From positions 1-59,842 of IMG/VR virus record IMGVR_UViG_3300022924_000019: a stretch of DNA of 59,842 nt; one strand, given 5' to 3'. Origin of the DNA: a virus. The notes under the pieces are model-generated. The model was not told the origin of the DNA. It saw nothing but the letters and a program-made list of their open reading frames with translations, and searched no databases. Position numbers and translations under genes: made by a program. Positions 1 through 59,842 of this stretch are shown here, in pieces. Numbering within the stretch: position 1 is the first letter of the stretch; the number at the start of each line of letters is the position of its first letter.

Positions 1-438
1 GGGATCACTGACCAGGGGCTCCCGCCGCCGTCCGTCTGGGCAGACCTGATCGACTATCGGGCGAAGCCGCTGGGCCGCGTCAAGATGCGGTTCATGTCGG
101 TCAGAGACTCGATGATCGACGACCCCGACGTCGCTTGCGTCCGTGTTGACTGGGGGTCCGATGATCTCAACGTCGAGCGGGAGACCCTGTTCGGAGGTAA
201 GACCCGCGTTCGTTTCGCTGGTGACCTCTGGCCCGAGCCCGAGACCGCCGAGATCCCGGAGGTCAAGATCAAGAGCTTCCGGGGCCTGACCCTCACCGAG
301 GACATGCGCAAGGCCATGGCGGGCTTCCTCCCGGCCGGCGCCGTGCTGCTGGGGGTCGTCAACCGGGCGGTCATCTACGAACTGGACGGGATCAAGTACG
401 AGGCAACCCTGCATCTCGGTCAAGAGGCTCGCGTCTGA
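1..438 (+). CDS. C-terminal part of a 556-aa hypothetical phage protein (continues from 58477)
   Basis: The frame is open from base 1 to the TGA at 436-438. It is the continuation of the frame that begins at 58477 and runs off the other end: bases 1-126 repeat at 59710-59835, so on the closed circle the protein is 411 + 145 = 556 codons. The internal ATG at 85 is not a real start. I recognise no domain. The next gene starts at 438 within TGATG, so the two are translationally coupled. Function unknown. Confidence 0.8.
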   Translation, partial: GITDQGLPPPSVWADLIDYRAKPLGRVKMRFMSVRDSMIDDPDVACVRVDWGSDDLNVERETLFGGKTRVRFAGDLWPEPETAEIPEVKIKSFRGLTLTEDMRKAMAGFLPAGAVLLGVVNRAVIYELDGIKYEATLHLGQEARV

Positions 439-5890: not shown

Positions 5891-6166
5891 GTGGCCTTCT
5901 ACGCGGTCATCGGAGTTGCCGGGGTCGATGGGATCAAGGCGGGAGATATCCTCGTCATCGACCCTCTCTCGGGCGTCGTCTACCCGATGCACAACATTCC
6001 GCAGGAAGGCCCGCCAGTCGTGAACCAGATCGACCCGGACAAAGAGTATGCGGCGGCCAAGGCCAACAAAGCCGCAGGGATGATCGGCGAAGAAGCCTTC
6101 GGCGCTATCGTTGACAGGATCATGGACGCGAACCCGGCGTGGTTCCCTCCGGAGGACAAGACGTGA
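5891..6166 (+). CDS. Hypothetical protein, 91 aa
   Basis: GTG at 5891, one base after the previous stop, so probably coupled to it. The N-terminal half looks beta-rich (AVIGVAGVDGIKAGDILVID), the C-terminal half helical. The stop overlaps the GTG of the DUF2786 gene at 6163. No family recognised. Confidence 0.6.
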   Translation: MAFYAVIGVAGVDGIKAGDILVIDPLSGVVYPMHNIPQEGPPVVNQIDPDKEYAAAKANKAAGMIGEEAFGAIVDRIMDANPAWFPPEDKT

Positions 6167-7245
6167 GCCAGGAACTCAGCGCCGAACAGATCAACGCGGT
6201 CTCCCTGGTCGAGAAACTACTTCGCACGGCTGGCCGGTCGCCCGAGGAAGCGGCGATCTATCACGCCAAGGCCCAGCAAGTCATGCTGGACTTCAACCTC
6301 GATCTGGCGACGGTCGAACAGAACAGCGGCGAGTCCGGCAAGCGGATGGACGCCATGCTGAAGGGCGGGCACTTCGAGTGGCAGCGCGACCTCTGGCGGG
6401 ACGTGGCCAGCCTGAACTTTTGCATGTACTTCGCGACCACGGTCTACGAGAAGAAGTTCTCCTGGGCGCCTAACAAGACCAACACCGGCATGGTCAAGGT
6501 CTGGCGGGAACAGCGGTCCCGGCGGCATCAGCTCATCGGTCGGATGGTCAACGTGAAGTCGGCCGAGGTCATGGCCCAGTACCTCGAACAGTCCATCGAC
6601 CGCATCCTTCGGCAGCGCCTGGGCGAGAAGCACTACGGCTTGGTGCAAGAGGCCATCGACCAGCGGTTCACCCGCTCGCAGCTTTACGGCAAATGGGCTA
6701 ACTCCTATCGTGAAGGCGCCGCCGAGGCGATCCAGAGGAAGTTGCGAGCCCGGCGGCAGGAACAACTCAACGAGGAGCGAGCCAAGGTCGAGAAGGCAGC
6801 CGAGGAAGCCCGGCAGCGCGGCTTCGAGAACGCTACGACGGCGACGGCAGTCACTATCGCCAGCTTCAGCAAGAGCGAGAAGATCGCCAACTACGACTTC
6901 AAACACGGTGAAGGCGCATGGGCCAGGGCTGAGGCGGCCGACGTCGCGCGACGGGAGCGCAGCGCCCGCTATCTAGCTGAGATGGAGGCCGCCCGCGCCC
7001 GCCGGATCGCCAATGATCCCGAGTACGCTGCCCGGCTCCGTAGGGAGGCCGAGGAAGACGCCAAGCGGGAAGCCCGCAACGCGCGCAAGCGTGAACGCTA
7101 CTACGAACAGAATGGCTATCGGCGAGCCGAGGGGCCGAGCTACAAGGGTGACTGGTCTGCCCGCCGCGCCGGCTACGAAGACGGCCACGCGGTCTCTATT
7201 GACCTTCAGACGGGCGGGACCAAGACGGCGGGAGCAATCGGATGA
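6163..7245 (+). CDS. DUF2786-domain protein, 360 aa
   Basis: GTG at 6163 with GGAGG 7 nt upstream (6151-6155). About residues 8-50 match the DUF2786 pattern: a helix VEKLLRTAG, then PEEAAIYHAKAQQVMLDFNL. About 60-190 form a second conserved region (WQRDLWRDVASLNFCMYF) usually found after DUF2786. From about residue 190 the protein is a highly charged Arg/Glu/Ala coiled coil. The family is widespread in phages and bacteria with no established role; nucleic-acid binding is plausible from composition. Coupled to the next gene by ATGA. Confidence 0.8.
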   Translation: MSQELSAEQINAVSLVEKLLRTAGRSPEEAAIYHAKAQQVMLDFNLDLATVEQNSGESGKRMDAMLKGGHFEWQRDLWRDVASLNFCMYFATTVYEKKFSWAPNKTNTGMVKVWREQRSRRHQLIGRMVNVKSAEVMAQYLEQSIDRILRQRLGEKHYGLVQEAIDQRFTRSQLYGKWANSYREGAAEAIQRKLRARRQEQLNEERAKVEKAAEEARQRGFENATTATAVTIASFSKSEKIANYDFKHGEGAWARAEAADVARRERSARYLAEMEAARARRIANDPEYAARLRREAEEDAKREARNARKRERYYEQNGYRRAEGPSYKGDWSARRAGYEDGHAVSIDLQTGGTKTAGAIG

Positions 7246-7604
7246 GCGTTCAGTGGCAGTACATGGGACATGCTATCGAGCATATCCCCATCGGTTCAGG
7301 GGTCGAGTGTGACCCGAGCAAAGGGCAGTATCGCCGCGCGCGGTACGGCGCTGTAGAGCGTCGGGCACGACCCGTCCGACTGGTCCGGAACCACGGGAAC
7401 ATGTATCTTCCGGATCGTTACGAACTGGGACGCAAGTTCTTCTACGACGTCTACGACTGGGGCGATCCGCACGCCCTGTCGATGCACCTGTTCACCGACG
7501 AAAAGTCGCGCGACTACTACCGCCGCAAGGTCGCCAAACGCGCGCCGCTTTGGAGCGGGAAGGTCGGCTTCAAGACGAAGATCTGGGGGAGGAATGCCCG
7601 GTGA
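7242..7604 (+). CDS. Hypothetical protein, 120 aa
   Basis: ATG at 7242 in an ATGA overlap; its stop overlaps the NADAR GTG at 7601. The protein is basic and aromatic (RVLV-type strands, then ELGRKFFYDVYDWGDPH). No family recognised. Coupling suggests co-production with the NADAR protein. Confidence 0.6.
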   Translation: MSVQWQYMGHAIEHIPIGSGVECDPSKGQYRRARYGAVERRARPVRLVRNHGNMYLPDRYELGRKFFYDVYDWGDPHALSMHLFTDEKSRDYYRRKVAKRAPLWSGKVGFKTKIWGRNAR

Positions 7605-8260
7605 CCGTGATCGACTCTTTCTCGGGCCGCTACCGGTTCCTGTCAAACTTCTATCCTGAGCCGGTCGAGTGGGCCGGGCTACGGTGGCCCTCGGTAGAAC
7701 ACGCCTTCCAGGGTGCGAAGCACATGGACCACGGATTTCGCGAACTGATCCGCACCGCACGCACCCCCGCCGAGGCCAAGAGAATCGCCCGGTCCCGTCC
7801 GGCTATCTCCGACTGGGACGATTGGCGGGTTCACGTCATGGACGCGCTCCTGCGGACCAAGTTCTCCGAGTACAAGATGCGGCTGGCTTTGTGCCGCACA
7901 GACCCCGCCGAGCTGATCGAAGGCAACACCTGGGGAGACACCTACTGGGGAGTCTGCAAAGGCGTCGGCGAGAACATGCTCGGCCAGCTCCTCATGAAGA
8001 TCCGGTCGGAACCGTTCCTCTGGAATCGAGCCGCCGGAGACTATCCGCCGGGCGCCGTTTATATCGGCCGGGGCACGCCCTATGGAAATCGTTTCGTGAT
8101 CGGCCAGGACGGCGACCGGGAAGAAGTGGTTCGTCGCTTCGAGTGCGAAGTACTGCCGACGCTCGACGTCTCCGATCTGCGCGGCAAGCATCTTGTCTGC
8201 TCGTGCGTTCCGAAAGCCTGCCATGGCCGGCCGATCATGCGAAAGGCGAACCTCCCGTGA
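7601..8260 (+). CDS. NADAR-DUF4326 fusion, putative ADP-ribosyl-guanine hydrolase
   Basis: GTG at 7601 overlaps the upstream stop, with GGGGGAGGA about 8 nt before it. About residues 5-140 are a NADAR domain: FLSNFYP near 13-19, PSVEHAFQGAK near 30-40, then a helical half ending LGQLLMKIR. About 147-219 match DUF4326: AVYIGRGTPYGNRF, GDREEVVRRF and C-terminal CSCVPKACHG with three cysteines. Some NADAR proteins remove ADP-ribose from guanine in nucleic acid and act as antitoxins to DarT-type toxins (established for the family); an anti-defence role here is inference. Other NADAR proteins act in riboflavin-related metabolism. Confidence 0.85.
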   Translation: MTVIDSFSGRYRFLSNFYPEPVEWAGLRWPSVEHAFQGAKHMDHGFRELIRTARTPAEAKRIARSRPAISDWDDWRVHVMDALLRTKFSEYKMRLALCRTDPAELIEGNTWGDTYWGVCKGVGENMLGQLLMKIRSEPFLWNRAAGDYPPGAVYIGRGTPYGNRFVIGQDGDREEVVRRFECEVLPTLDVSDLRGKHLVCSCVPKACHGRPIMRKANLP

Positions 8261-9186
8261 CTGACGGACCCCAAGAGCTGAAGGGCACGTTCCGCAAGTA
8301 CCGGGATCACAACTTCCGGCCCGAAACGCGACTCCTGATCGGGCAGATCAATAGCCTGATCTCGGAGTACGACGACATGGGTATGAAGATGAGCGTTCGC
8401 CAGATCTTCTATCAGCTCGTCGGCATCGACCAGATCGACAACGACGACCGTGAGTATGAGCGGATCAGCAAGACGATCTCAAACGCCCGCATGGCCGGGC
8501 TGATCTCGTGGGACGCCATTGAGGACCGCAATCGGAACCTCGCCGGCCTGCGGACGTGGCGCCACCCCAAGGACGCCTTGGAAGAAGCCCATACCAACTA
8601 CCGCCTGAACTGGTGGGAGAACCAACACTACTTCCCGGAAGTCTGGGTCGAGAAGGCCGCTCAAGAGGGCACGGTCGGACAAATCTGCGACGAGCTTCAG
8701 GTCAACTTCCTGGCCCTGCGCGGGTACAACAGCCAGTCCGAGCAATGGGCGGCGGCGCAGCGGTTCCGTCGTGCGATCAACCGCGGGCAGACCCCCATCG
8801 TCTTCCACCTGGGCGACCACGACTACTCGGGCATGGACATGACGCGCGACAACCGTGACCGACTCGAGATCTTCTGCGGCACCCCGATCATCGTTCAGCG
8901 GCTCGCCCTGAACATGAACCAGATCGAGGAGTTCAACCCGCCGCCTAATATGGGAAAGTCGAAGGACTCCCGGAAGGAAGACTACTTCAAGAAGTTCAAG
9001 ACCTACTCAACCTGGGAACTGGACGCGCTGAAGCCCACGATCATCAAAGACCTGATCAAGGACGCCATCATGCGCATCCGGGATGAGGACAAGTGGGATG
9101 AAACTCTCGCTCGGGAGGTCTGCGACAAGCGCGAGATCGCCGAGCTTCTGGAACAGTACGGGACCGACGACCATGAAAACGCATGA
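8257..9186 (+). CDS. Topo VI subunit A / Spo11-like protein (5Y-CAP plus Toprim), 309 aa
   Basis: GTG at 8257 overlaps the upstream stop. The key signatures are in the right order: MSVRQIFYQLVG with Tyr52, matching the (R)(D/Q)I(F/Y)Y site of the 5Y-CAP winged helix that carries the catalytic tyrosine of Spo11 and Topo VI-A; WVEKAAQ with Glu132, matching the first Toprim acid; and HLGDHDYSGMDM with Asp187 and Asp189, matching the Toprim D-x-D. The length is close to a minimal A subunit. No GHKL ATPase B subunit is encoded, as in reported single-subunit A-like proteins of mobile elements. It may cut or nick DNA or handle topology; activity is inferred. Confidence 0.8.
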   Translation: MTDGPQELKGTFRKYRDHNFRPETRLLIGQINSLISEYDDMGMKMSVRQIFYQLVGIDQIDNDDREYERISKTISNARMAGLISWDAIEDRNRNLAGLRTWRHPKDALEEAHTNYRLNWWENQHYFPEVWVEKAAQEGTVGQICDELQVNFLALRGYNSQSEQWAAAQRFRRAINRGQTPIVFHLGDHDYSGMDMTRDNRDRLEIFCGTPIIVQRLALNMNQIEEFNPPPNMGKSKDSRKEDYFKKFKTYSTWELDALKPTIIKDLIKDAIMRIRDEDKWDETLAREVCDKREIAELLEQYGTDDHENA

Positions 9187-9463
9187 AGACTACATGACGA
9201 CGACCGAGATCTTCGCCAACATGGACCCGGAGGCGGATGATGACCGACGCTATCTCGCGGTCGTCTGCCTGAACCTGACGCAGACGCTCCTCTACCGGGG
9301 TTATGCGGACAGCCCGGAGGCGGCGGTTCGGAAGGCGGAAGCGAGACGCGATGAAGTCTTCGAGAAGTACTCGCGCCAAGACCGGCGGGACAAACCCAAC
9401 CATCCGATGAGCCGACTGGCCGAGGCGCTGGAACGGCTCGAAGCCCTAGTGGGGGTCGCATGA
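9173..9463 (+). CDS. Small hypothetical protein, 96 aa (paralogue of the next gene)
   Basis: ATG at 9173 overlaps the end of the Topo VI-A-like gene. The fold looks like a strand (RRYLAVVCLNL), a helix (PEAAVRKAEARRDEV) and a C-terminal helix (MSRLAEALERLEALVG). The same arrangement and C-terminal pattern recur in the next gene, so the two are probably a tandem duplication. No function recognised. Confidence 0.65.
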   Translation: MKTHEDYMTTTEIFANMDPEADDDRRYLAVVCLNLTQTLLYRGYADSPEAAVRKAEARRDEVFEKYSRQDRRDKPNHPMSRLAEALERLEALVGVA

Positions 9464-9738
9464 TGGGCCTGAACGTTTACGAGGCGGCAGTTGAGCCGGA
9501 GCGCCCTGCGCTCCGGTTTCTCTGTGTCTACCGGGTCGGCGCGCTAGAGCGGCAGGCCTATGGTGAGACTTCCGAAATCGCGCAAACCCGCGCTATCGAA
9601 GACATGGCGTTCTGGCAGACCGATCCGCTCGGCAGGCTCTTCGGCGCCCTTGACCGACTCGATCTCTACGTTCGAGGCCATCCGCTATCCCGTCTTTCTC
9701 GCGCCCTGGCGAGCCTCGAACAGCATCTAGGAGAATAA
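9460..9738 (+). CDS. Small hypothetical protein, 92 aa (paralogue of the previous gene)
   Basis: ATGATG at 9460/9463 overlaps the upstream stop. It shares with the previous gene a first strand (RFLCVYRVGAL), a helix ending near EDMAFWQTDP and the C-terminal helix HPLSRLSRALASLEQHLG, against HPMSRLAEALERLEALVG. Also has GALDRLDLYV. Function unknown. Confidence 0.65.
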   Translation: MMGLNVYEAAVEPERPALRFLCVYRVGALERQAYGETSEIAQTRAIEDMAFWQTDPLGRLFGALDRLDLYVRGHPLSRLSRALASLEQHLGE

Positions 9739-10619: not shown

Positions 10620-11789
10620 ATGAGCAAGACCAACATTCCCGCCGACACCTTCGATACCGAGCTGCTGACCGCCGGCAACGTGCGCAACGCCCTGAAGGGC
10701 GCCGAGGCGACGAAGACCGACTCCTACATGGTCGCCCCCTCCAAGCTGCGCGAGATCCCCGGCTTCAACGTCCGTGTCGAGACCCCGGACTACCTGACCC
10801 ACGTCGCCGGCACCAAGGAGTCGATCAAGGCCAACGGCTTCGACCCGACCAAGCCGATCTCGGGCTTCGTCGGCAAGGACGGCGACGAAGACGTCATCTA
10901 CGTCACGGACGGCTACACCCGCCGCCGGGCCGTGCTGGAAGCGATTTCCGAAGGCTTCGAGATCGCCGCCGTCCCCGTGACCCTGCAACCGGCCGGCACG
11001 TCCGTCGAAGACCTGATGGTCGGCCTCGTGACCGCCAACTCCGGCCGCCCGCTGTCGGTCTACGAGAAGGCCATCGTCGCTAAGCGTCTGCAAGGCTATG
11101 GCTGGGAACCCCAGAAGATCGCCGACAAGCTGACGATCACCACCCGCTACCTCGACGACCTGATGGTTCTGATCGCCGCGCCGTCCAAGGTCCGCAACGC
11201 CGTGATCAAGGGCCAGATCAGCCCGGCCGAAGCCGTCAAGGCGCTCCGCAAGGACGGCGCCAAGGCCGCCGACGTGGTCGAAGGCGCGGTGAAGGAAGCC
11301 GCCGCCCGCGGCAAGACGAAGGCCACGCCCAAGGACGTGAAGGCCGCCAAGAAGAAGGGCGCCGGCAAGGACGTCCCGGCCGGTGAAACGAAGGCCGAAG
11401 GCTTCGGCAAGCGCAAGTCCGGCGTGGCGTGGTCGGCGACGACCAGGGGCGGCATGGTCCATCAGACCGGGACCTACTTCTTCAAGCAGGGCGACGTCCT
11501 GCCCATCGACGATATCCGGCCCGTCCGCCTGTTCCACGACGGCGACTGGTGGAACTTCGTCGATCCGGCGACCAAGGAACACGTCCTGATCGAAGACTCC
11601 ATCGAGATCGAAGTCACGATCCGCATGGTCGCCCCGGCCGAAGAAGCCGCGAAGGACCCGGCGAAGACCGAGGGCGAGGACGACACCTTCGCCCTGCCGG
11701 GCTCCCAGAAGCCCCAGGACGGGCAGGAAGGGCAGGAAGGGACCGATGAAGCCCCCGCCCCCGAAACGCCCGCCGACGACGAACTGTAG
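10620..11789 (+). CDS. ParB-like protein, 389 aa, without a ParA partner
   Basis: ATG at 10620 with AAAAGGA upstream. About residues 30-135 are a ParB/sulfiredoxin-type N-terminal domain with the DGYTRRRAV element in the place of the GERR motif. About 140-200 are a helix-turn-helix region (WEPQKIADKLTITTRYLDDL). About 205-245 are a Lys/Ala-rich linker, then a beta-rich domain with DIRPVRLFHDGDWWNF, and an acidic tail ending ADDEL. ParB proteins bind palindromic sites, so this is a leading candidate to bind the genome-wide motif (inference). No parA is present, so classical partition is unlikely. Confidence 0.8.
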   Translation: MSKTNIPADTFDTELLTAGNVRNALKGAEATKTDSYMVAPSKLREIPGFNVRVETPDYLTHVAGTKESIKANGFDPTKPISGFVGKDGDEDVIYVTDGYTRRRAVLEAISEGFEIAAVPVTLQPAGTSVEDLMVGLVTANSGRPLSVYEKAIVAKRLQGYGWEPQKIADKLTITTRYLDDLMVLIAAPSKVRNAVIKGQISPAEAVKALRKDGAKAADVVEGAVKEAAARGKTKATPKDVKAAKKKGAGKDVPAGETKAEGFGKRKSGVAWSATTRGGMVHQTGTYFFKQGDVLPIDDIRPVRLFHDGDWWNFVDPATKEHVLIEDSIEIEVTIRMVAPAEEAAKDPAKTEGEDDTFALPGSQKPQDGQEGQEGTDEAPAPETPADDEL

Positions 11790-58476: not shown

Positions 58477-59842
58477 ATGTCACAGTTTGCGGCGGGCCAA
58501 GCTATCATCTGCATTCGACAGGCCAAGAAGGTTCAGTCGATCCTCGCGGGCGCACCCACGCCGGGTCGGGCCTACGTCGTCGACTCCGCGAGGAAGCGGA
58601 CAGACTCTCAAGGCTACGAGAACTATCCGCCTGTCGTCACCTTACGGGGTGATGCGTCCTGGCCTAACGGATGGAGCGAAGAGCTGTTCCGGGCGGCCAC
58701 GGAAGACGAGATCTGGAAAATCGTCGGCCAGGGGCAGACAGACGGCTTCCCGATCACGCCGGACGCCCCCGACGAAGACGGGTTCACGGTGACCGCGCCC
58801 GAGATGAGCGTCGGCTACACCCTGGCCGACCGACTCGAACAGCTCTGCAAAGAGGCGGGGATCGTCATCGTCTGCGAGGAAGGCACGTTCAAGGCGCGGC
58901 CGAACCGCGAACGCGAGAAGCCCGCCCTGGCCCGCTTCCTGCATGATCCGGCCCGCGGCTACCCGACCGCCGGGCCGGTCAGCCGGGGACTTCGCGTGGT
59001 GATGATCTGGCCCCTGCTGAGCCGTTCGATGCCCGGCAACCAAGCCTACACCGTCGCCGACAGCCGCCGGCGCCAACGCGAGAACAAGAAGGGGCGTGAC
59101 TTCATCGACGAGATCATGCTGAAGGAGCATCCGGGGAAATGGTTTCCGTTCGCCGCTTTCCGCGCCGCCAAGTCCTTCGAGATCACCTTCACGGATGAGA
59201 CTCTGAGGGGCCGCGCGAAGCGCGACCTCGATAAGAGCCTCCACGGGTGGCGAGAAGGACCCGATCTGTTTCGCAGCGGACTCGAATCCGCCTCGCTTGT
59301 CGAAAACCTCTCTTACGCCGACAGCCGCGAGCTTCTGAAGGCGTGGGGCGATATCATGCTCACCCCTCCGTCTTGGACCGATCCCAGTTGGGATTTCTAC
59401 GCCGAGCGATACCGAAAGGCCGGAGACCAGCTTCGCCATGGCGGCGTCAGAATCCCGGTCCTCCCTCCCGGCATCAAGATCAACCGCAACACGCCGTTCC
59501 TCGATCCGAACTGGCTGATCGGCCCGGCCCGTCTGACCATGGCGGATATGAGCAAAGCCGCGTCCTGGCTCGCCGGTCTCACTGCCCGCGCCGACAACCC
59601 GGCGGGCGTGGTCTACGCTGACGAGATTCAGGAATCCCTCTGGGACGCCATGTCGGACCTCGCCCGAGCGGGCGTCCAATGGCTCAGCTACAAGGACGAC
59701 AGGACGCGCGGGATCACTGACCAGGGGCTCCCGCCGCCGTCCGTCTGGGCAGACCTGATCGACTATCGGGCGAAGCCGCTGGGCCGCGTCAAGATGCGGT
59801 TCATGTCGGTCAGAGACTCGATGATCGACGACCCCCAGTCAA
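58477..59842 (+). CDS. Large hypothetical phage protein, N-terminal 411+ codons (partial; closes at 1-438)
   Basis: ATG 58477, 3 nt after the previous stop. The frame stays open to the end of the window and, across the closure point, ends at 438, giving 556 aa. Features: an N-terminal beta part, a helical VGYTLADRLEQLCKEAG, and an aromatic, basic mid-region (DPARGYPTAGPVSRGLRVV). I recognise no family. A palindrome copy (59135-59147) lies inside. The last 7 bases of the window are not from this gene. Confidence 0.7.
   Translation, partial: MSQFAAGQAIICIRQAKKVQSILAGAPTPGRAYVVDSARKRTDSQGYENYPPVVTLRGDASWPNGWSEELFRAATEDEIWKIVGQGQTDGFPITPDAPDEDGFTVTAPEMSVGYTLADRLEQLCKEAGIVIVCEEGTFKARPNREREKPALARFLHDPARGYPTAGPVSRGLRVVMIWPLLSRSMPGNQAYTVADSRRRQRENKKGRDFIDEIMLKEHPGKWFPFAAFRAAKSFEITFTDETLRGRAKRDLDKSLHGWREGPDLFRSGLESASLVENLSYADSRELLKAWGDIMLTPPSWTDPSWDFYAERYRKAGDQLRHGGVRIPVLPPGIKINRNTPFLDPNWLIGPARLTMADMSKAASWLAGLTARADNPAGVVYADEIQESLWDAMSDLARAGVQWLSYKDDRTRGITDQGLPPPSVWADLIDYRAKPLGRVKMRFMSVRDSMIDDPQS
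59135..59147. promoter_or_regulatory. Copy of the genome-wide palindrome inside the 556-aa gene
   Basis: GGAAATGGTTTCC, one mismatch (position 8). Confidence 0.5.
59710..59842. repeat. Terminal overlap and fold-back end of the contig
   Basis: 59710-59835 equal 1-126 exactly. The final GACCCCCAGTCAA (59830-59842) is the reverse complement of TTGACTGGGGGTC at 146-158, so the last 7 bases came from a strand switch at the inverted GACCCC/GGGGTC. The real circle is about 59,709 bp. Confidence 0.9.

What the first reader, a model, noticed from the sequence alone, without database searches (positions are those of the whole stretch)
8257..9186. Phage-encoded Topo VI-A/Spo11-like protein without a B subunit
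Three signatures occur in the correct order: RQIFY with Tyr52 (catalytic tyrosine of 5Y-CAP), VEKAA with Glu132, and GDHDYSG with Asp187/Asp189 (Toprim). No GHKL ATPase partner is encoded in the genome. Single-subunit relatives of the A subunit have been reported from mobile elements (type IIB-like Mini-A); whether this one cuts DNA, and for which purpose (recombination, ending, host attack), is open.
Basis: partly seen in the sequence, partly recalled or inferred. Interest (0 to 1): 0.72.

Follow-up and report, generated by a model that had tools for sequence, protein, structure and literature searches.

The report
Phage Mini-A, a B-less topoisomerase VI relative
This phage gene encodes a member of Mini-A, a known but biochemically untested family of lone DNA-cutting subunits related to topoisomerase VI and meiotic Spo11; it keeps the catalytic residues, has no ATPase partner gene, and in its own branch comes with a conserved companion gene of unknown function.

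Summary
ORF 8257-9186 (+; 309 aa, GTG start) carries R48-x-x-x-Y52, E132 and D187-x-D189; these residues and E254 are each invariant in 150 aligned relatives. It belongs to PHROG 6247 (E=3.6e-93) and is homologous to the Pseudomonas phage NP1 protein (39%, E=3e-50) that the literature uses as the Mini-A example. Kinship with topoisomerase VI-A is real but remote: profile-profile E=6e-5, 0 of 100 column shuffles as good, catalytic residues in register; the best solved-structure match is M. mazei Top6A, but TM-score is only 0.34. No GHKL ATPase was found in this genome, which looks complete (126-bp terminal overlap), nor in 50 other Mini-A virus records.

New here: R48 sits where Top6 has the clasp arginine R102, and E254 is probably its partner E342; in this clade a DUF2786/DUF7168 gene precedes Mini-A in 12 loci (8 overlapping by 1-8 bp) and is not found with Mini-A missing in a syntenic Rhizobium phage.

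Most likely it works as a homodimer that cuts, and perhaps reseals, DNA through a 5'-phosphotyrosyl link without ATP. Whether it serves relaxation, recombination or something else is open. New member of a known kind.

The parts
8257..9186 (+). Mini-A (Topo VI-A/Spo11-like) gene, 309 aa, GTG start
   Evidence: ORF; PHROG 6247 'DNA topoisomerase' E=3.6e-93; homologous to Pseudomonas phage NP1 Mini-A
8398..8412 (+). RQIFY: R48 (position of the Top6 clasp arginine R102) and Y52 (predicted catalytic tyrosine)
   Evidence: R48 and Y52 150/150 invariant; aligned with TLRxxYY of Topo VI-A
8650..8652 (+). E132, predicted Toprim metal ligand (Spo11 E233 / M. mazei Top6A E202)
   Evidence: 150/150 invariant; aligned with the Topo VI-A glutamate by hhalign
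8815..8823 (+). D187-x-D189, predicted Toprim metal ligands (Spo11 D288/D290)
   Evidence: 150/150 invariant; aligned with the DxDP of Topo VI-A
9016..9018 (+). E254, probable counterpart of Top6A E342 (clasp with R48)
   Evidence: 150/150 invariant in A4, ExxA spacing as in Topo VI-A; the profile alignment left a gap here, so the equivalence is inferred
6139..7245 (+). DUF2786/DUF7168 gene, operon companion of Mini-A in this clade
   Evidence: Pfam DUF7168 and DUF2786 matches just below their cut-offs; upstream of Mini-A in 12 loci of this clade; alignment of 11 homologues
7242..7604 (+). 120-aa hypothetical gene, overlaps its neighbours by 4 bases
   Evidence: no PHROG match
7601..8260 (+). 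NADAR + DUF4326 fusion gene (GTG start chosen; longer TTG start at 7550 possible), between DUF2786 and Mini-A in this phage
   Evidence: NADAR E=1.4e-20, DUF4326 E=3.9e-17; overlaps
9173..9463 (+). Small downstream gene of the same operon, overlaps Mini-A by 14 bases
   Evidence: no PHROG match
1..126 (.). Terminal repeat, first copy (sign of a complete, circularly permuted or circular assembly)
   Evidence: exact match to 59710-59835
59710..59835 (.). Terminal repeat, second copy, followed by 7 further bases

Best explanation
The gene encodes a phage Mini-A protein: a Topo VI-A/Spo11-type winged-helix plus Toprim subunit that works without a B (GHKL ATPase) subunit. Two copies probably form a dimer around bent or supercoiled DNA. 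Y52 of one copy attacks a strand and becomes linked to its 5' end, helped by divalent metal held by E132, D187 and D189 of the other copy. The R48 and E254 side chains probably form the clasp that keeps cleavage rare and reversible, as R102/E342 do in Top6. With no ATPase to drive strand passage, the most likely use is ATP-independent cleave-and-reseal or controlled breakage of phage DNA during early DNA metabolism. Shown here: family membership, residue conservation, remote homology to Topo VI-A, absence of a B gene. Inferred: dimer, chemistry, clasp, role.
For: PHROG 6247 E=3.6e-93. tblastn to NP1 38.9%, E=3e-50; NP1 is the Mini-A example in PMC7614492. Catalytic residues and R48/E254 150/150. 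hhalign against 57 Topo VI-A: E=6.2e-5, score 42.4 against at most 30.1 in 100 column shuffles; global mode probability 92.8%, E=5.7e-8, with R48/Y52, E132 and D187/D189 in register. AlphaFold2 model pLDDT 93.5, top PDB hit M. mazei Top6A 9o7o_A, probability 1.00. No HATPase_c here or in 50 Mini-A virus records, while the control rang in 14 of 14 genomes. Literature: SPO11 alone cuts DNA as a dimer with hybrid active sites and can reseal nicks (PMC11922746); Spo11 E233/D288/D290 (PMC11746154); R102/E342 clasp (PMC13040014). The Mini-A gene sits among replication or recombination genes in NP1 (ligase, Sak4, Cas4, helicase), PspYZU01 and RDJL Phi 2.
Against: No Mini-A activity report was found in the papers searched. 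A Topo VI-A HMM run against single Mini-A sequences does not separate them from decoys; the 150-member alignment alone is weak (2 of 100 shuffles reach its score). Other groups of dimeric Toprim proteins cut DNA as ordinary nucleases (JetD, GajA). In the window the gene lies about 30 kb from the replication genes.
Confidence: 0.6

Rival explanations
1. Spo11-like break maker: Mini-A introduces lasting double-strand breaks with 5'-protein-linked ends to start recombination-dependent replication, or to break host DNA.
For: SPO11 without partners makes breaks and stays attached to the ends (PMC11922746). Some Mini-A genes lie beside recombination genes: Sak4 and Cas4 in NP1. The window itself encodes a Gp2.5-like annealing protein and an exonuclease.
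Against: Recombination genes are not constant neighbours: no family is universally adjacent in about 180 loci. The invariant R48 and E254 resemble the Top6 clasp that restrains cleavage. No host-DNA targeting signal was seen.
Confidence: 0.25
2. Two-protein enzyme: in this clade the DUF2786/DUF7168 protein is the functional partner of Mini-A and does the regulating that Top6B does elsewhere, without ATPase activity.
For: Gene upstream, same strand, in 12 loci of the clade; 8 overlap by 1-8 bp. The syntenic phage RHph_I65 lacks Mini-A and was not among the records matched by the DUF2786 protein.
Against: Most other Mini-A loci lack it, so it cannot be required by the family. L033, at 46-47% identity, is not in the DUF2786 cluster. 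Co-transfer may be passive. Two genes separate the pair in the window.
Confidence: 0.12
3. Toprim nuclease of the JetD/MksG (DUF2399) type rather than a topoisomerase-type transesterase.
For: Seven of 24 members have weak DUF2399 matches, best E=1.6e-4. JetD is a related Toprim nuclease (PMC13040014).
Against: R48-x-x-x-Y52 is invariant and aligns with the Topo VI-A catalytic tyrosine. Three members match the Topo VI-A Toprim model and three match TP6A_N weakly. In the one neighbourhood survey made, no SMC gene family was among the recurrent neighbours.
Confidence: 0.05
4. Catalytically dead DNA-binding remnant.
For: GDHDYSG departs from the proline that 149 of 150 relatives keep.
Against: Every residue assigned to catalysis is intact and the frame is open. 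The departure is not at a metal ligand.
Confidence: 0.04

Closest known systems
Mini-A (type IIB topoisomerase-like family of mobile elements; Takahashi et al. 2020, read only through reviews PMC7614492 and PMC8185306)
   Same: Homologous to the named example, phage NP1 (39% over residues 20-282, E=3e-50), single subunit, no B gene, phage-encoded, same catalytic residues.
   Different: Only about 39% identical to NP1; belongs to a separate supported clade with RHph_TM26 and Pam3; has a conserved DUF2786 operon companion; Y in place of P after the second aspartate.
Topoisomerase VI A subunit (Top6A)
   Same: Catalytic Y, E, D, D and the clasp-position R align; remote profile homology; top PDB hit is M. 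mazei Top6A.
   Different: About 12% identity; catalytic tyrosine at residue 52 instead of about 94-110; no B subunit gene, whereas the archaeal Top6A genes fetched here have what appears to be the B gene directly upstream.
Spo11
   Same: B-independent cleavage is known for mouse SPO11; the window's FY matches the yeast pattern of F before the catalytic Y.
   Different: Viral; no meiotic partners; Spo11 works in vivo with Top6B-like proteins (TOP6BL, Rec102).
JetD/MksG and GajA Toprim nucleases
   Same: Related dimeric Toprim DNA-cutting proteins (PMC13040014).
   Different: Mini-A has an invariant topoisomerase-type tyrosine; no SMC gene family recurs beside it.

Membership tests
Mini-A | Sequence homology to described Mini-A proteins | tested here: met
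   NP1 38.9%, E=3e-50 (Mini-A example); archaeal plasmid 'Topo Mini-A' 29.5%, E=8e-19
Mini-A | Single A-type subunit without a GHKL B subunit in the element | tested here: met
   No HATPase_c or Topo-VIb_trans in the window; no HATPase_c in 50 relatives. Other GHKL models not tried.
Mini-A | Encoded by mobile elements | tested here: met
   Virus record with terminase, portal, head and tail genes; relatives in 75 phage and 35 plasmid records
Mini-A | Catalytic Y and Toprim E, D, D | tested here: met
   150/150
Mini-A | Motif and C-terminal differences from Topo VIII described in the original paper | not testable with these tools
   Original paper not held
Topoisomerase VI (holoenzyme) | A2B2 with a GHKL ATPase B subunit | tested here: not met
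   No B gene
Topoisomerase VI (holoenzyme) | A subunit with winged helix plus Toprim fold | tested here: inconclusive
   Profile homology E=6e-5; top PDB hit Top6A but E=1.2e-3, TM 0.34; first model found none
Topoisomerase VI (holoenzyme) | ATP-dependent strand passage | not testable with these tools
   needs protein
Topoisomerase VIII | Includes a Top6B-like ATPase region | tested here: not met
   309-aa protein with A-type residues only; no HATPase_c in the genome
Spo11 | 5'-covalent double-strand break formation by a dimer | not testable with these tools
   residues present; activity untested
DUF2399 / JetD nucleases | DUF2399 domain | tested here: not met
   No Pfam match for this protein up to E=10; weak matches in 7 of 24 relatives

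The most novel reading that the evidence does not exclude
In this phage clade Mini-A and the DUF2786/DUF7168 protein form a two-component, ATPase-free type IIB-like DNA-breaking enzyme, a branch of the Topo VI/Spo11 family in which a protein unrelated to Top6B is the regulating partner.
Probability: 0.12. Interest if true: 0.65.

Novelty: new member of a known kind. Interest (0 to 1): 0.36.

Why it matters
Mini-A is the simplest natural relative of Topo VI-A and Spo11, and no activity has been reported for it in the papers that could be searched here. A B-less, widespread phage version that keeps the catalytic residues, and probably the restraining clasp, is a tractable system for asking what a lone Topo VI-A subunit does. 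That bears on how meiotic Spo11 arose from a topoisomerase. The DUF2786 companion gives a concrete, testable candidate partner.

Tried and rejected
Pfam on the protein itself: no match up to E=10. phmmer against the PDB: top hit 4bwr is a spurious, repetitive match and was ignored. Profiles A2 and A3 against PDB sequences: only 1d3y (Topo VI-A) at E=0.22, then nothing relevant. Viral-contig scan with the single protein found no relatives; with the alignment it found 549. A Topo VI-A HMM against single Mini-A sequences failed. A DUF2399 comparison set could not be assembled: nothing rang in the genomes searched or in the control genomes. A link to thymidine hypermodification (aGPT-Pplase, PF18723) was tested: 7 of 50 Mini-A records, mostly this clade, but not the window; it looks like shared ancestry. 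A universal neighbour gene was sought and not found. Close DNA relatives in GenBank phages for window 7-20 kb: none.

Full report
Observation. The open reading frame 8257-9186 (+) encodes 309 residues, begins with GTG and shares four bases with the stop of the preceding gene. In an alignment of 150 relatives each of R48, Y52, E132, D187, D189 and E254 is invariant; in a smaller but more divergent set of 24 (phages, plasmids, an archaeal virus) R48, Y52, E132 and D187 remain invariant and D189 fails once, as N in Haloarcula virus HCIV-1. The pattern is therefore under strong selection. The one local oddity is Y190, where 149 of 150 members have P.

Family. PHROG 6247 'DNA topoisomerase' covers residues 13-304 at E=3.6e-93. 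Seventy-five GenBank phage records and 35 plasmid records encode homologues; 549 candidate stretches in viral contigs and 180 in prokaryotic genome contigs were confirmed, both scans returning only the best 80. The Pseudomonas phage NP1 protein (38.9%, E=3e-50) is the one printed as the Mini-A example in PMC7614492. An archaeal plasmid protein annotated 'Topo Mini-A' also matches (29.5%, E=8e-19). The original description (Takahashi et al. 2020) is not held; I rely on PMC7614492, PMC8185306 and PMC11302465. In a tree of 24 members the window groups with Rhizobium phage RHph_TM26 and Pseudanabaena phage Pam3 at 100/99 support.

Is it really related to Topo VI-A? Direct sequence methods are weak: no Pfam match, a Topo VI-A HMM does not separate single Mini-A sequences from decoys, and the best PDB sequence match, Topo VI-A 1d3y, is at E=0.22. 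Comparing profiles is stronger. The 24-member Mini-A alignment against 57 archaeal Topo VI-A sequences collected here gives E=6.2e-5 and score 42.4; 100 column-shuffled versions of the same alignment average 15.8 and reach at most 30.1. In global mode the probability is 92.8% and R48/Y52, E132 and D187/D189 fall on the TLRxxYY, E and DxD residues of Topo VI-A. The 150-member alignment, less diverse, is only suggestive (2 of 100 shuffles reach its score). AlphaFold2 gave confident models (pLDDT 92 and 93.5). Foldseek found no Topo VI-A with the first and, with the second, M. mazei Top6A (9o7o_A) first of 350,542 chains with probability 1.00 but TM-score 0.34 and rmsd 16.7. The fold is supported but not settled; I could not inspect coordinates.

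No B subunit. HATPase_c and Topo-VIb_trans are absent from the window. The window is probably a complete genome, since its first 126 bases recur exactly at 59710-59835. None of 50 other Mini-A virus records, 19 of them GenBank records described as complete genomes, has HATPase_c, while the same search rang in all 14 control genomes. Only these GHKL models were tried. By contrast the archaeal Topo VI-A genes fetched as comparators have a reading frame directly upstream that I take, from its sequence, to be the B subunit. Being B-less looks like a trait of the family.

Surroundings. The gene lies in a run of overlapping genes: DUF2786/DUF7168 6139-7245, a 120-aa gene 7242-7604, NADAR-DUF4326 7601-8260, Mini-A 8257-9186, 9173-9463 and 9460-9738, with a ParB-like gene at 10620-11789. 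Primase, polymerase, helicase, exonuclease and a Gp2.5-like annealing protein lie at 38-50 kb, so here Mini-A is apart from the replication genes, whereas in NP1 it sits between ligase and Sak4. Across about 180 loci no gene family is always adjacent. Within the window's clade, however, the DUF2786 gene precedes Mini-A on the same strand in 12 loci, 8 of them with an overlap of 1-8 bases. Rhizobium phage RHph_I65 shows the same gene order as RHph_TM26 up to that point (RecD-like helicase, reductase, DUF3489) but lacks Mini-A, and it was not among the records matched by the window's DUF2786 protein. The pair thus behaves as an accessory cassette. DUF2786 has no known function that I could find.

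How it most likely works. From Spo11 and Top6: the tyrosine of one subunit and the metal site of the other form a hybrid active site, cutting leaves 5'-phosphotyrosyl ends, and mouse SPO11 does this with no partner and can reseal nicks (PMC11922746; PMC11746154). Y52, E132, D187 and D189 correspond to yeast Y135, E233, D288 and D290. In Top6 a salt bridge R102-E342 restrains cleavage and E342Q makes the enzyme cut more (PMC13040014). Mini-A has an invariant arginine at the same spacing before the tyrosine (R48) and an invariant glutamate in an ExxA motif like that of Topo VI-A (E254). The R48 match is supported by the alignment; the E254 match is inferred, because the profile alignment leaves a gap there. 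I therefore favour a homodimer that cuts and may reseal phage DNA without ATP. Shown: membership, conservation, remote homology, lack of a B gene. Inferred: dimer, chemistry, clasp, and the biological role, which I regard as open between relaxation and recombination.

Verdict. It is a new member of a known, biochemically uncharacterised family. The additions are the conserved clasp-like pair, the B-less state tested across 50 relatives, and the DUF2786 companion.

Noticed in passing
window 6139-7245; L002, L003, L026-L032, L034, L039: A DUF2786/DUF7168 gene of unknown function precedes Mini-A in 12 loci of the window's clade, often overlapping it; the syntenic phage RHph_I65 lacks Mini-A and was not matched by this DUF2786 protein.
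   Followed up: partly
window 7601-8260: A NADAR-DUF4326 fusion gene lies between the DUF2786 gene and Mini-A in this phage. NADAR enzymes can remove ADP-ribose from guanine (own knowledge), so it could be a counter-defence gene; not tested.
   Followed up: no
window 1-126 and 59710-59835: Exact 126-bp repeat at both ends plus 7 extra bases at the right end; looks like an assembly overlap of a circular or circularly permuted genome.
   Followed up: yes
L025, L269-L272 (Streptomyces linear plasmids): Distant Mini-A relatives lie within about 4-17 kb of an end in five linear Streptomyces plasmids that I looked up; most were picked because they looked close to ends, so no rate can be given. In three a 'Helicase associated domain protein' gene lies nearer the end.
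   Followed up: partly
L020, L025: Two Streptomyces plasmid relatives carry Q where E254 stands; in Top6 the E342Q change raises cleavage. Whether the positions are equivalent is inferred.
   Followed up: no
L265-L268: Four genomes from the phylum of a Methanosarcinales MAG carry a second, roughly 430-aa Topo VI-A-like gene with KRDCYY but TDFSPWSG or TDLSPWSG, so the second aspartate of DxD is replaced.
   Followed up: no
L008 5995-6124 (Salmonella phage SPN19): The annotated start of the DNA topoisomerase gene (6124) lies downstream of the codon for the catalytic tyrosine; the open frame has an ATG at 5995 that includes it.
   Followed up: no
L024 4016-5005 (Clavibacter phage 33): The Mini-A protein contains an exact internal repeat of about 36 residues covering the VVEKEALVG motif, perhaps an assembly error or a duplication.
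   Followed up: no
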